A stretch of DNA of 64,000 bases from Bacteroidota bacterium (GTDB lineage Bacteria; Bacteroidota; Ignavibacteria; Ignavibacteriales; Ignavibacteriaceae): assembly GCA_021815405.1 (NCBI GenBank), contig JAKAGV010000006.1, forward strand, positions 186,001-250,000, in the 5' to 3' direction. A program made the position numbers and the translations under genes. The stretch's first letter is position 1. The number at the start of each line of letters is the position of its first letter. This document shows, in pieces, positions 13,251 through 22,913 of this stretch. The notes beneath the pieces are model-generated. The model did not search any database. It was not told the origin of the DNA and saw only the letters and a list, made by a program, of their open reading frames with translations.

Positions 13251-15251
13251 TTATTTGACTATCATTAGTTTATTAAAATAGTTTTTCCCGCCCATGTTCA
13301 GTCTGTAAAAATAAACCCCGCTGCTGCACAACTCGCCGTTCTCATTCCTTCCGTTCCATAAAACTGTATTTGTACCAGCATAAGCTACACCGCTGTATAA
13401 GGTTTTTATTTTCTGACCAAGTATGTTATAGACAACCAGCTTTGCATTTTCATTTGAAGTTGCATAAAAATTAATTCTTACAAAAGAAGTTTTTGCAGTC
13501 AGCGGATTAGGATAGCTTTCACCAAGAACTTTATCAGAACTTGAAGGATGAGGAATATTTTCAATTACGACATCGAAAGAATCAGTATTTATCGTGTAAT
13601 AATTGTTTGCAGGCTCACGTACAGTATTTCCTAATGAATCAGAATAAGTAAAATAGAAATAAATTTGCTGTCCATCGAGATATTGCGGTACAGTATAATA
13701 ATATTTTAATGAGTCATGATTAAGCGATGCCGAACTAAAGTTTGTGGTACTGGTGGAATAATAAATCGTAGCCGTATTGCTTTGAATTCCGTTCTGAGGA
13801 AAGAAAATTTTGTTTATCATATAAGTACCGGAGGAATCGGAAATATTCGGATAAGCAAGCGCTTTTTCTGCGGAGATTAAACCATAACCTATATCATTAT
13901 TTGGATTATTATAATTGTCGGAAGTTTCCAAAATAATTTGTCTTGCCTGTACATTTGATAAATATGGAAATGCAGAAAGCAGCATAGCACCAATTCCGGC
14001 AGCTATCGGTGTAGCCGCAGAAGTACCGCTATCAAAAAAATATTTATTATATCCGCCGCCGTTTGCCAGATCTACATCAGCTCCGTAAACACTAACTCCA
14101 TCGGCAACCACATCAGGCTTTATTCGTCCGTCTGCAGTCGGTCCGTGTGAACTGAAAGGAGCGACTGTATTATTCGAATATACAGCACCGACCGCAATAA
14201 CATTAAACGCATCAGCAGGAGTGTCAATGTAATACCAGGGAGAGTTGCCTTCATTTCCCGCAGCAGTAAAGGTAAGAACGCCTCTTTGAAATGCTAAACT
14301 TAATGCTTTTGCAGAGATGGTTGTGTTACCATTTAAATCCTGATAAGTGTAAGATGTCGACGCAGTATCAAAAATGTTATAACCTAAAGAGCTTGTTGTA
14401 ATATCGACACCAAGACCTTCCATCCATTCAAGCGCCGCTGCATAATTATCTTCTTCTACTCGCGATTCGCTTCTGTCATCTTCCGTTTTTGCAAGTATAA
14501 AGCTCGCGTTGTAAGCCGGACCGATAATTGAGCTGTCTTTATATCCACCTAAAATTGAGAAAACCCAGGTACCGTGAATGCCTGAACTAGCAGCGTCGCC
14601 AGGCTGCCATGCAGTTGATGAATCATGGAAGACAAAATTATATTCGTCAATTACTTTTCTGGTTGCAAGTGATTCGTGATCTCTCCAGTGAAAACCGTTA
14701 TCAAGAATTCCGATAATCACTCCCTTTCCGTTTATTCCTTTTGATTGAACAACCGGAATATCGGATAGTTCGTATTGACCGTAGGAAGGTCCGTAATCAG
14801 AAATAGGTAACGAACCGCTGCTTGATTTTTGTATTCCCGGATTCACTTCAGAACTTCCATGTTTTAAATAAATTATTCTAACCGGATCAATTTTTTCTAC
14901 AAACGGCAAAGCTTGAACTTCATTTTTTTGCTCATCGGTTAAATAAGCAGAAACTGCATTAAACCAGCGAAGTTCATTCTCGATTTTAATACCGAGACTT
15001 TCTACTTTAACCACATAATCTTTTCTAATCGGAAGATCTTCATAAGTAATGATATGTCCCGGCGGCATTACCTTCTCGCGTCTTGCAATAGCACGCGGAG
15101 TAAGCAAGCTTAAAGCTTCCTTATAAAGAGCACTTGCTTTGCTTAAACTCATTCCAGGAGCGATTCCTTTATCTTTAAAATAAATTAGATATTTAGTTTG
15201 AGGAAAACTAAACGAGGAAAGCAAAATGAAAAGCAGAAAATATTTCTTCAT
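13251..15251 (-). CDS. secreted subtilisin-like serine protease (S8) with T9SS sorting domain
   Basis: A 666-residue exported protease. A signal peptide (MKKYFLLFILLSSFSFPQ) leads into a propeptide-like region (about 20-150). The S8 catalytic triad is complete: D184 in GILDNGFHW, H226 in GIHGTWV, S411 in SGTSAATPIAAG, with oxyanion N333 in TAAGNEGNS. After the protease domain (to about 470) comes a beta-rich segment. The C-terminal 85 residues begin GESYPNPLTAKTSF and end FNKLMIVK, a type A sorting domain that predicts T9SS export and surface attachment or release. It probably degrades extracellular protein or matures other surface proteins. It is upstream of the O-methyltransferase. Confidence 0.92.
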   Translation of the reverse strand: MKKYFLLFILLSSFSFPQTKYLIYFKDKGIAPGMSLSKASALYKEALSLLTPRAIARREKVMPPGHIITYEDLPIRKDYVVKVESLGIKIENELRWFNAVSAYLTDEQKNEVQALPFVEKIDPVRIIYLKHGSSEVNPGIQKSSSGSLPISDYGPSYGQYELSDIPVVQSKGINGKGVIIGILDNGFHWRDHESLATRKVIDEYNFVFHDSSTAWQPGDAASSGIHGTWVFSILGGYKDSSIIGPAYNASFILAKTEDDRSESRVEEDNYAAALEWMEGLGVDITTSSLGYNIFDTASTSYTYQDLNGNTTISAKALSLAFQRGVLTFTAAGNEGNSPWYYIDTPADAFNVIAVGAVYSNNTVAPFSSHGPTADGRIKPDVVADGVSVYGADVDLANGGGYNKYFFDSGTSAATPIAAGIGAMLLSAFPYLSNVQARQIILETSDNYNNPNNDIGYGLISAEKALAYPNISDSSGTYMINKIFFPQNGIQSNTATIYYSTSTTNFSSASLNHDSLKYYYTVPQYLDGQQIYFYFTYSDSLGNTVREPANNYYTINTDSFDVVIENIPHPSSSDKVLGESYPNPLTAKTSFVRINFYATSNENAKLVVYNILGQKIKTLYSGVAYAGTNTVLWNGRNENGELCSSGVYFYRLNMGGKNYFNKLMIVK

Positions 15252-19519: not shown

Positions 19520-21901
19520 ATGAATAAAATAAAATTACTAATTTCCCTTACAGTGGGAATTTTTGTTCTTTCGATGTTGACAAATACGTCAGCACAAACT
19601 GCTAAGATAATGAGAGTAGCAATGTCTCCTCGCATGGTAGGTACTATGGCTCCTGGAACCAATCCGGTTTACAGCGGTCAGCTTATCGTTGCAAAAGGGA
19701 TGAAAGTTTATCTTGCAGCAGATACAACCGGCGGCGTTAGTGCTTTTTCCTGGAGTATTACCGGTCCGGCTGGATCAAAAACTACTTTAAGCAGTACTAA
19801 TTCACAAAATGTAACCTTTGTACCAGATTCAGTAGGACAATATATCGTTAGCCTTACTGTTGGAAGTACTACGGATGCGGATACATTCACTGTTGCAACT
19901 TATATTGGTGTAAGTGGCAGCGGCGGATTAAAATGCGCAACCTGTCATGGCTCATATCCAACTCAACCAGGATATCAGCAATTTTCAGGATGGCAGCAAA
20001 CACCGCATGCTAAAATTTTCCAGCAAGGTGTTACTGGTCAGTTAGAAACTGCAAATGTAAACAACATGTTGATGGGTACATATTCATCAAGCTGTTGGAA
20101 ATGCCACACAACCGGCTGGGATCAAACTGCTAACAATGGTAACTTCGGTTATCTTTCTCATCAAAGCGGTTTTGATACTGTATGGGCTAAAACCTTCACT
20201 AAGTCCGGAAGTAGTTTCTTAATTCCGACAAACGATCAAACTGCATGGAATTTATTGACTACAAATCCGCAGTACAGCAATGCTGCGCCGTTAGCAAGTA
20301 TCGGCTGCGAAAGCTGTCATGGTCCTGGTTCAGCACATATTAGTACTTTAAATCCAAATATGATCAATCATAACCTTGATGCAGGTATTTGTCTCCAATG
20401 CCATGATGCACCAACACATCACACAATTGGGACCTACTATGAAGCATCTGTTCATGCACAACTGCCTGATGGAGCACATACTGCACAAACCGGATGTTTC
20501 CCATGCCACAGCGGCGGTGCTTATTATAAATATATTAAGAACCAGACCAATCCAGGCTGGACTAATGCAGATGGAAATATTCCTATCTCTTGTGCAACCT
20601 GCCATGATCCTCATGATGCAAATAACTTCGGACTCCGCATTGCTTCTAACATTACTTTGCAAAATGGTTTCCAAGTTACTACCGGTGGTAATGGTCAGAT
20701 TTGTATGAGATGCCATCAAGCTCGTGCTAATGGAAACACTGTTATTACCAACAAAGCTCCTTATTACGGTTTTACAAATCGTTTCGGACCACACCATGGT
20801 CCTCAAACCGATATGTTCTTTGGTCAGAATGCATATCAATACGGGGATACAACTATTACTGGTATGATGACTCACGGTTCTGTTCCTGATGCATGCGTTA
20901 CATGCCATATGGCTAATATCGGCGGAGGTAACAGTCCAAGCCACCAATGGAATATGGTAGATACTACCGGCGGAACAGCCAGAGACTTTGTTACTGGATG
21001 TGTTAGCTGCCACGGTCCAATTCAGAGCTTTAACGACATTAAAGCAAGCTCAGACTGGGACGGCAATGGTAAGATTGAAGGAGTTCAGACTGAAATCCAA
21101 GGTATGATGAATAACCTCGCTTCTTTATTACCAAAGGATAGTACCGGTGCAGTTGTTACGATGATGTCTGATTCTTTAAAAGTTAAAAACCAGCCTAATG
21201 TTATAAAAGGTATTTACACTTATGAATTTGTATTGAGCGATGGAAGTTACGGTGTACATAATGCCAAATACACAGTAGCTTTATTACAGAAAGCATTGAG
21301 CAGCCTTGGTTATACTGTACCGGTTGAGATGACTTCTTTTGCAGCCAATGCAGGAATAAACCAAGTTACTTTAAATTGGGAAACTGTTACTGAAACAAAT
21401 AACAAAGGCTTCGAAATCCAGCGTAAGATTGGAAATGCCTGGGTTACAGATGGCTTCGTAAATGGCAAAGGTAATTCAACTGAAATCTCACAATATTCTT
21501 ATATTGATAAGTTGAATGATTTTTCTGGTGGAAATGTATCTTTCAGACTAAAACAAATCGACTACAACGGAACAGCTCGTTATTCTAAGGAAGTCGAAGT
21601 TAATGTAGTTGCCGGACCGAAGGAATATACATTGTTCCAGAATTATCCTAATCCGTTCAACCCGTCAACAACAATCAAATTTGCTTTGCCATATCAAAGC
21701 AATGTAAAGATTGTTGTTTACAATATTACCGGTGAACAAGTGAAGGTTCTAGCGAATGCAAACTTAGGAGCTGGTGAACATCAAGTTGTAATGAATGCTT
21801 CTAACTTGTCTTCAGGAGTTTATTTCTATGCAATAGAAGCTACTTCTTTGGACGGTTCACATTCATTTAGAGAAACTAAGAAGATGATTCTTATGAAGTA
21901 A
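19520..21901 (+). CDS. secreted nine-heme c-type cytochrome with T9SS sorting domain
   Basis: A 793-residue exported multiheme protein. A signal peptide (to about SAQ26) precedes a PKD/Ig-like beta domain (about 45-130). Nine CxxCH heme sites follow, at residues 139, 192, 263, 291, 326, 358, 395, 459 and 494, with many extra His as possible axial ligands. Then comes an EF-hand-like loop DWDGNGKIEG (512-521) with a conserved helical tail (YGVHNAKYTVALL), a fibronectin-like segment, and the C-terminal sorting domain starting FQNYPNPFNPSTTIKF (706). T9SS export would place it on or outside the outer membrane, fitting extracellular or surface electron transfer. The strong Shine-Dalgarno, the terminator and the codon use suggest high expression. 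Confidence 0.93.
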   Translation: MNKIKLLISLTVGIFVLSMLTNTSAQTAKIMRVAMSPRMVGTMAPGTNPVYSGQLIVAKGMKVYLAADTTGGVSAFSWSITGPAGSKTTLSSTNSQNVTFVPDSVGQYIVSLTVGSTTDADTFTVATYIGVSGSGGLKCATCHGSYPTQPGYQQFSGWQQTPHAKIFQQGVTGQLETANVNNMLMGTYSSSCWKCHTTGWDQTANNGNFGYLSHQSGFDTVWAKTFTKSGSSFLIPTNDQTAWNLLTTNPQYSNAAPLASIGCESCHGPGSAHISTLNPNMINHNLDAGICLQCHDAPTHHTIGTYYEASVHAQLPDGAHTAQTGCFPCHSGGAYYKYIKNQTNPGWTNADGNIPISCATCHDPHDANNFGLRIASNITLQNGFQVTTGGNGQICMRCHQARANGNTVITNKAPYYGFTNRFGPHHGPQTDMFFGQNAYQYGDTTITGMMTHGSVPDACVTCHMANIGGGNSPSHQWNMVDTTGGTARDFVTGCVSCHGPIQSFNDIKASSDWDGNGKIEGVQTEIQGMMNNLASLLPKDSTGAVVTMMSDSLKVKNQPNVIKGIYTYEFVLSDGSYGVHNAKYTVALLQKALSSLGYTVPVEMTSFAANAGINQVTLNWETVTETNNKGFEIQRKIGNAWVTDGFVNGKGNSTEISQYSYIDKLNDFSGGNVSFRLKQIDYNGTARYSKEVEVNVVAGPKEYTLFQNYPNPFNPSTTIKFALPYQSNVKIVVYNITGEQVKVLANANLGAGEHQVVMNASNLSSGVYFYAIEATSLDGSHSFRETKKMILMK

Positions 21902-21957: not shown

Positions 21958-21993
21958 ACCCGGTTATGCCCTCTGTGTAACCGGGTTTTTTAT
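21958..21993 (+). terminator. intrinsic terminator of the cytochrome gene
   Basis: ACCCGGTTA (21958-21966) and TAACCGGGT (21978-21986) form a perfect 9-bp GC-rich stem with an 11-nt loop, followed by a run of T (21986-21991). It lies 57 bp after the cytochrome stop codon and insulates it from the BON gene. Confidence 0.92.
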
Positions 21994-22154
21994 TGCCTTT
22001 GAGTATATTTGATGGAATGTTGATGGACATTACAAGATAAAAACCTAATTCAACTAAGAATAAAAATGCTACGTCTAATCTGTGTAATTTGAAAATAATC
22101 TTGTTAGTATTTGATTTGGTTCTGAAAATAAAAATTAAGCAGAAAGGCAACGCA

Positions 22155-22913
22155 ATGAAAAAGGTAATTGAAAATATTGGTTTGAAGATATTATTCTTCT
22201 TTTTGGCGGCTGGCTTAATAGTGTCGTCAGCATTTGCTCAAAACAAAAGCCATAACGTTTCTCCAAAAAATGTTAAGGTCTTTGTCGAATACAAGATCCT
22301 AAAAGATAATGTATTGAATAACGCCAACATTAATGTAGACGTCAATAAAAATTATATAGTCCTTACCGGAAATGTTCCATCTTTATATGAGCGCAATTTA
22401 GCCAGAAAAGATGCAAAGGACGAATCGCACGGATATTTAATCAAGAATGATTTACAAGTTGCCGGAACAAATATTCCATCACAGACTGTTGTAAAAAATG
22501 TTCTTAATAAGATTTATAAAAACGGATTTTACGGTATATTTGATTGGGTAGACGCATCGGATACAAACGGCACAGTAACTCTTTCCGGCTGGGTGCATGA
22601 CCCGTGGCTGAAAGAGTGGTTTCAAAAGGATGCTGAAAAAGTTGCCGGCGTACGACAAATAAAAAATGAAATCCAAAATACTTTCGGTCCTGGTTATATC
22701 GGATACAGAGCCGCCTGGTTGATTTACAGCCAGCCTGAATATCAAGGTTCACAGTTTATGGTAAATCCGCCGATACATATTATTGTAAATGGAGATTCGA
22801 TAATTCTTAAAGGTCAAGTTTATACTAAAGGCGAAGGAGGATGGTTAAAAAATCTATTGGAATTTAGAACCGGCGCCTTTGATGTAAGCAATGGTCTAGA
22901 AGTAAAGAGTTAA
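22155..22913 (+). CDS. exported BON-domain repeat protein
   Basis: A 252-residue periplasmic or surface-associated protein with three BON-like units (roughly 45-110, 115-185 and 200-250). BON domains are small alpha/beta folds found in OsmY-like proteins that bind phospholipid membranes or act in envelope stress. Signal peptide: MKKVIENIGLKILFFFLAAGLIVSSAFAQ. The ATG at 22155 has GAAAGG 8 nt upstream; an upstream TTG at 22089 would spoil the signal peptide. Conserved pieces are NINVDVNKNYIVLTGNVPS, GTVTLSGWV and GDSIILKGQVY, the V-x-L-x-G strand typical of BON. It is downstream of the cytochrome but separated by a terminator, so it is a separate transcript. Confidence 0.82.
   Translation: MKKVIENIGLKILFFFLAAGLIVSSAFAQNKSHNVSPKNVKVFVEYKILKDNVLNNANINVDVNKNYIVLTGNVPSLYERNLARKDAKDESHGYLIKNDLQVAGTNIPSQTVVKNVLNKIYKNGFYGIFDWVDASDTNGTVTLSGWVHDPWLKEWFQKDAEKVAGVRQIKNEIQNTFGPGYIGYRAAWLIYSQPEYQGSQFMVNPPIHIIVNGDSIILKGQVYTKGEGGWLKNLLEFRTGAFDVSNGLEVKS

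What the first reader, a model, noticed from the sequence alone, without database searches (positions are those of the whole stretch)
19520..21901. Nine-heme cytochrome exported by a T9SS domain with a calcium-loop-like motif
Nine CxxCH motifs, a PKD-like N-terminal domain, an EF-hand-like loop (DWDGNGKIEG) and a sorting domain are in one polypeptide. A T9SS route to the surface differs from the lipoprotein OmcA/MtrC type, so it suggests a different way to place a multiheme conduit outside. Base use and a very strong terminator suggest high expression.
Basis: partly seen in the sequence, partly recalled or inferred. Interest (0 to 1): 0.68.

Follow-up and report, generated by a model that had tools for sequence, protein, structure and literature searches.

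The report
Surface nine-heme cytochrome exported by T9SS
The gene encodes an electron-carrying protein with nine hemes, related to the metal-reducing surface enzyme OcwA, that carries a type IX secretion tag and appears to be placed outside the cell by that route across a whole class of bacteria (Ignavibacteria), which would be a different way from the lipoprotein one to put respiratory wiring on the cell surface.

Summary
Window 19520-21901 (+) encodes 793 aa with a signal peptide, nine CxxCH motifs that use all 18 cysteines, and a type A T9SS sorting domain above curated cut-offs. A family profile matches OcwA (6i5b), the nine-heme surface reductase of Thermincola, at E 1e-29, in order along the chain. 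Six distal-ligand histidines and the two pocket positions of OcwA are conserved. The EF-hand-like loop is conserved in at least 42 of 45 relatives at its key positions. Nearly all sampled intact relatives across Ignavibacteria have nine hemes and the sorting tail. The genome encodes SprA, PorV-family proteins, PorU sortase and cytochrome c assembly genes. A second T9SS nine-heme protein in the same genome heads an operon with the porin-cytochrome set known from Ignavibacterium album; some relatives carry a five-heme lipoprotein of the same kin there instead. Best reading: a holo-cytochrome loaded in the periplasm, exported folded by T9SS, acting as surface terminal reductase fed by that conduit. 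It is a terminus rather than a conduit. The focal gene stands alone. High expression is not shown. No paper in the library held here links T9SS with multiheme cytochromes. Export, heme content and activity are untested.

The parts
19520..21901 (+). T9SS-tagged nine-heme c-type cytochrome, OcwA-like (793 aa)
19520..19594 (+). Sec signal peptide without lipobox cysteine (residues 1-25, ...NTSA|Q)
   Evidence: read from sequence; no Cys outside CxxCH motifs
19652..19900 (+). PKD/Ig-like N-terminal beta domain (about residues 45-127)
   Evidence: PF22352 below cut-off; AF2 beta strands, pLDDT about 60-82 at residues 61-120
19919..21310 (+). OcwA/NrfA-type heme core with nine CxxCH (residues 134-597)
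   Evidence: profile hit to 6i5b, E 1.2e-29
19934..19948 (+). heme motif 1 CATCH
20093..20107 (+). heme motif 2 CWKCH (equivalent of an OcwA open-site heme)
20306..20320 (+). heme motif 3 CESCH
20390..20404 (+). heme motif 4 CLQCH
20417..20422 (+). His-His (residues 300-301), equivalent of OcwA HH281/282 over heme 2
20495..20509 (+). heme motif 5 CFPCH (equivalent of the second OcwA open-site heme)
20591..20605 (+). heme motif 6 CATCH
20702..20716 (+). heme motif 7 CMRCH
20792..20797 (+). His-His (residues 425-426), equivalent of OcwA HH380/381 over heme 5; H425 invariant
20894..20908 (+). heme motif 8 CVTCH
20999..21013 (+). heme motif 9 CVSCH
21053..21094 (+). conserved DxDx[N/D]G...E loop, probable calcium site (residues 512-525)
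21083..21304 (+). three C-terminal helices, NrfA/OcwA-like bundle (residues 522-595)
21317..21607 (+). spacer beta-sandwich (about residues 600-696), shared with at least a dozen other proteins of this genome
21632..21898 (+). T9SS type A C-terminal sorting domain (about residues 705-793)
21958..21986 (+). intrinsic terminator, 12-pair stem and U-run

Best explanation
[quoted passage not shown] Proposed steps: (1) Sec export; (2) nine hemes attached in the periplasm by the cytochrome c assembly genes; (3) the folded holo-protein is recognised by its C-terminal domain and passed through the SprA pore with PorV, and the tail is removed by the PorU sortase, leaving the cytochrome on the outside; (4) electrons reach it from a porin-cytochrome (Pcc) conduit encoded elsewhere in the genome; (5) the OcwA-like core passes them to external acceptors such as Fe(III) minerals, electrodes or shuttles. 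Shown by sequence: anatomy, homology to OcwA, presence of the secretion, assembly and conduit genes, class-wide conservation. Inferred: actual export, heme loading, docking to the conduit, and the acceptor.
For: Signal peptide, nine hemes and sorting domain. Profile match to OcwA E 1.2e-29 and to C. ferrireducens OmhA (6qvm) E 1.5e-21, ahead of NrfA and ONR. Conserved non-motif histidines (H163, H273, H312, H365, H475, H580 and pocket H301, H425) fit the six bis-His hemes and two open His-pocket hemes of OcwA (PMC6703420). Class-wide presence with the tail kept. SprA, 14 PorV-family hits over cut-off, PorU sortase 974 bits, 133 matches in the genome, nearly all in the tail region, cytochrome c assembly genes. 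A paralogue with nine hemes and a tail heads a Pcc operon in ten genomes. That operon corresponds to IALB_1840-1837 of I. album, with a 14-heme protein of 400 aa (PMC4245776). A homologue lies in a one-contig genome of 3,300,414 bp, the size of M. roseus, which can use Fe(III).
Against: The focal gene is not beside a porin or other cytochrome in this genome; synteny is with purM, a BON-domain gene, hrcA, grpE and dnaJ, so the link to the conduit is by analogy with the paralogue. The core could not be modelled well (pLDDT below 50 for residues 126-490). No expression, localisation or heme data.
Confidence: 0.7

Rival explanations
1. A T9SS-exported surface enzyme for a soluble oxyanion or nitrogen/sulfur compound (nitrite, hydroxylamine, arsenate, tetrathionate), with mineral reduction incidental.
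For: The core belongs to the NrfA/ONR/MccA structural superfamily, and OcwA itself is reported to reduce oxyanions as well as solids (PMC6703420).
Against: No CxxCK active-site motif as in NrfA/ONR (all nine motifs are CxxCH); a soluble substrate could be reduced in the periplasm, so surface display would give no clear benefit.
Confidence: 0.17
2. A surface electron relay or storage protein that wires cells to partner cells or extracellular cytochromes, not itself a terminal reductase.
For: Several other large cytochromes (20 and 39 hemes) are encoded in the genome; surface placement by T9SS would suit cell contact.
Against: Conserved His-pocket positions at the two OcwA open-site hemes suggest substrate binding rather than pure relay.
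Confidence: 0.08
3. The sorting tail is present but the protein stays periplasmic or is secreted and lost, so it is not part of surface respiration.
For: No localisation data; T9SS export of a covalently heme-loaded cytochrome has not been described in the papers held here.
Against: The tail is kept in all sampled intact homologues across the class and the genome encodes the secretion machinery.
Confidence: 0.05

Closest known systems
OcwA (TherJR_2595, PDB 6i5b) of Thermincola potens
   Same: Nine CxxCH in the same order, conserved distal histidines, His-pocket positions over hemes 2 and 5, C-terminal helices, surface location (predicted here, shown for OcwA)
   Different: OcwA sits on a Gram-positive cell wall without a T9SS domain; OcwA has about 105 residues between heme motifs 1 and 2 (its extra beta-sheet domain, residues 75-156) where this protein has 48; this protein adds a PKD/Ig-like N-terminal domain, a conserved calcium-like loop and two C-terminal beta domains
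OmhA (PDB 6qvm) of Carboxydothermus ferrireducens
   Same: Related core, profile E 1.5e-21
   Different: Eleven hemes (PMC7829351); Gram-positive host; no T9SS tail (general knowledge of Gram-positives)
MtrC/OmcA (Shewanella) and OmcB-type (Geobacter) outer-membrane cytochromes
   Same: Outer-surface multiheme cytochromes coupled to a porin conduit
   Different: Lipoproteins; OcwA fold is unrelated to the Shewanella ones (PMC6703420)
Pcc porin-cytochrome cluster of Ignavibacterium album (IALB_1840-1837)
   Same: The operon next to the paralogue has the same make-up: c-type cytochrome, porin, 14-heme cytochrome of about 400 aa, outer cytochrome
   Different: No T9SS nine-heme protein is mentioned for that cluster in the passages read; in the window's genus one is added at the 5' end
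NrfA, ONR and MccA multiheme reductases
   Same: Same superfamily; Cytochrom_C552 (PF02335) matches residues 451-619 above cut-off
   Different: Five or eight hemes, periplasmic, NrfA/ONR with a CxxCK heme; none here

Membership tests
T9SS type A cargo | Sec signal peptide plus C-terminal domain over the curated cut-off (TIGR04183, PF18962) | tested here: met
   32.5 bits (cut-off 23); 41.1 bits (cut-off 27); N-terminus read by eye
T9SS type A cargo | T9SS machinery in the same genome (SprA, PorV, PorU) | tested here: met
   PorK/L/M/N not searched
T9SS type A cargo | Export depends on T9SS | not testable with these tools
   needs mutants or cell fractions
OcwA-type nonaheme | Nine c-type heme motifs in the order of OcwA | tested here: met
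OcwA-type nonaheme | Six distal His ligands conserved | tested here: met
   five at 45/45, H312 at 44/45; matched to OcwA by sequence alignment only
OcwA-type nonaheme | His-His over hemes 2 and 5 | tested here: inconclusive
   Both pairs present in this protein; across the family H301 39/45, H300 23/45, H425 45/45, H426 19/45; placement over the hemes not modelled
OcwA-type nonaheme | Additional beta-sheet domain between hemes 1 and 2 | tested here: not met
   48 residues between motifs 1 and 2 here, about 105 in OcwA by the alignment; so it is filed as OcwA-like, not as OcwA
OcwA-type nonaheme | Heme 9 His-Met, hemes 2 and 5 five-coordinate, solid-acceptor reduction | not testable with these tools
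   candidate Met residues M464 (45/45) and M479 (37/45); spectroscopy and kinetics needed
NrfA / ONR nitrite reductase | CxxCK catalytic heme | tested here: not met
   all nine motifs are CxxCH
MtrC/OmcA lipoprotein cytochromes | Lipobox Cys and MtrC fold | tested here: not met
   no Cys outside the heme motifs, so no lipobox; the fold itself was not modelled, but the PF22113 match (35.6 bits) covers heme-motif stretches and OcwA is the far better profile match
Pcc porin-cytochrome complex | Porin and periplasmic multiheme gene next to it | tested here: not met
   focal locus has none; the paralogue at L071 8155-9744 meets it
EF-hand calcium loop | DxDx[DN]G followed by Glu/Asp at position 12 | tested here: inconclusive
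   positions 1, 3, 5, 6 conserved; position 12 mostly Gln, Glu at 9 and 14 conserved

The most novel reading that the evidence does not exclude
A whole class of bacteria displays outer-surface respiratory cytochromes through the type IX secretion system: heme-loaded, folded nine-heme reductases pass through SprA and join a porin-cytochrome conduit, in places alternating with lipoprotein relatives. T9SS would then be a further way, besides lipid anchors and cytochrome filaments, to build an extracellular electron transfer surface.
Probability: 0.55. Interest if true: 0.78.

Novelty: new variant of a known kind. Interest (0 to 1): 0.62.

Why it matters
Ignavibacteria are found on anodes and under iron-reducing conditions, and one cultured member can use Fe(III), but their surface cytochromes have been searched for with Geobacter and Shewanella models. 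This family gives a concrete candidate for the outermost step, and a direct test of whether T9SS can export proteins carrying covalent cofactors. Surveys that look for lipid anchors or for porin neighbours would miss it.

Tried and rejected
AlphaFold2 on an 8-sequence alignment gave a poor heme core (mean pLDDT 48.5), so no structural superposition on OcwA was made; its Foldseek hits reflect only the beta domains (FnIII pairs, PorU). Codon adaptation against ribosomal genes does not separate highly expressed genes here. Neighbourhood of the focal gene: synteny with housekeeping genes in the genus and a different conserved context in Melioribacter-like genomes, no porin. Literature searches for T9SS with multiheme or c-type cytochromes gave nothing relevant. 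The M. roseus multi-omics paper has no match for multiheme, sorting or outer membrane terms. NrfA/ONR membership rejected for lack of CxxCK.

Full report
What was checked. The ORF at 19520-21901 is real: 793 aa, signal peptide, nine CxxCH motifs using all 18 cysteines, against 0.013 motifs expected in residue shuffles. The C-terminal sorting domain exceeds both curated cut-offs. The PKD-like N-terminus is sub-threshold in Pfam but modelled as a beta domain.

What it is related to. A single-sequence search already puts 6i5b first. That 6i5b is OcwA rests on my own knowledge; it agrees with the residue numbering in PMC6703420. A profile of 45 homologues matches it at E 1.2e-29, in separate stretches that run in order along the chain; next come OmhA of C. 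ferrireducens (6qvm; name also from my own knowledge), NrfA and ONR. The OcwA paper describes six bis-His hemes, one His-Met heme, and two open-site hemes each facing a His-His pair (PMC6703420). In the family the non-motif histidines 163, 273, 365, 425, 475 and 580 are invariant, 312 is 44/45 and 301 is 39/45; aligned to OcwA, six fall on distal-ligand positions and two (301, 425) on the pockets, the second with an uncertainty of one residue. The nine motifs of the 45 aligned members were a selection criterion, so their invariance is partly by construction; the histidines and the loop were not selected for. OcwA's extra beta-sheet domain between hemes 1 and 2 is missing here (judged from motif spacing), so I call it OcwA-like.

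The calcium-like loop. Residues 512-525 (DWDGNGKIEGVQTE) are conserved: D512 45/45, D514 44/45, N/D516 44/45, G517 45/45, E520 42/45, E525 45/45. It sits at the start of the C-terminal helices. Position 12 is mostly Gln, so it is not a canonical EF-hand.

Distribution. 51 of 59 genomes (the window's own and 58 relatives) have a match with the core (matches include a second nine-heme subfamily and five-heme lipoproteins). Related records are titled Bacteroidetes, Ignavibacteriaceae or Ignavibacteriales bacterium. In one search every intact full-length homologue had nine CxxCH and an NPF-type tail; shorter counts were contig-end truncations or one gene broken by a stop. In a wider draw all 30 fetched loci had the tail (read by eye), 29 with nine motifs and one with eight. 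In 395 genomes of the phylum 67 match at E 1e-10, four of them outside the class. One holder is a single contig of 3,300,414 bp, the published size of Melioribacter roseus (PMC3534657), for which that paper lists Fe(III) as a usable acceptor.

Route and power supply. The genome has SprA, PorV-family proteins, the PorU sortase, 133 matches to the full protein, nearly all of them in the tail region, and cytochrome c assembly genes. A second nine-heme T9SS protein (L071 8155-9744) heads an operon: tetraheme, barrel-like 425-aa protein, 14-heme, hexaheme lipoprotein. The same order occurs with the nine-heme gene in ten genomes. The last four genes correspond to the Pcc cluster of Ignavibacterium album, whose periplasmic cytochrome is 400 aa with 14 hemes (PMC4245776); the match is by gene order, size and heme count, not by direct alignment. 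The porin is found in 127 of 197 genomes of the class; in 20 further porin loci no T9SS nine-heme gene was seen in the operon, and in four porin loci overall a five-heme lipoprotein related to the C-terminal half of the core is present instead. The two nine-heme subfamilies fall apart in the tree with full support, long branches noted.

Focal gene context. It stands alone between purM and a BON-domain gene, then hrcA, grpE, dnaJ, in the genus; other context elsewhere. A terminator follows. So its link with the conduit is inferred from the paralogue.

Judgement. Best reading: a T9SS-displayed OcwA-like terminal reductase. Shown: sequence anatomy, kinship, conservation, presence of machinery. 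Inferred: export, heme loading, electron supply and acceptor. That T9SS moves folded cargo through SprA is established knowledge of the system, not tested here. Literature: no paper in the held library joins T9SS with multiheme cytochromes; most subscription journals and preprints are not covered, so novelty is provisional.

Noticed in passing
L071 8155-13952 (G000:C7): Operon of a T9SS nine-heme cytochrome, tetraheme, barrel-like protein, 14-heme and hexaheme lipoprotein in the same genome: an I. album-type porin-cytochrome cluster with an added T9SS cytochrome.
   Followed up: yes
L135 7513-8646, L137 6228-7355, L138 7107-8294, L197 5317-6525: Five-heme lipoproteins related to the C-terminal half of the nine-heme core, placed at the other end of the same porin operon: a possible swap of lipid anchor for T9SS tail.
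   Followed up: partly
L145 4898-9552 (G000:C18): Adjacent 20-heme and 39-heme cytochrome genes in the window's genome.
   Followed up: no
L033 3048-5402 (same gene in L045): A nine-heme homologue interrupted by an in-frame TAA; broken gene or assembly error.
   Followed up: no
window 22089-22913: BON-domain secreted protein directly downstream of the cytochrome, conserved in that place in the nearest relatives.
   Followed up: partly
window 13251-15251 (-): Subtilase-like protein of 666 aa with a C-terminal tail of the same T9SS kind.
   Followed up: no
L127 8592-11288: 18-heme gene next to a T9SS nine-heme gene that has no porin beside it, in a relative.
   Followed up: no
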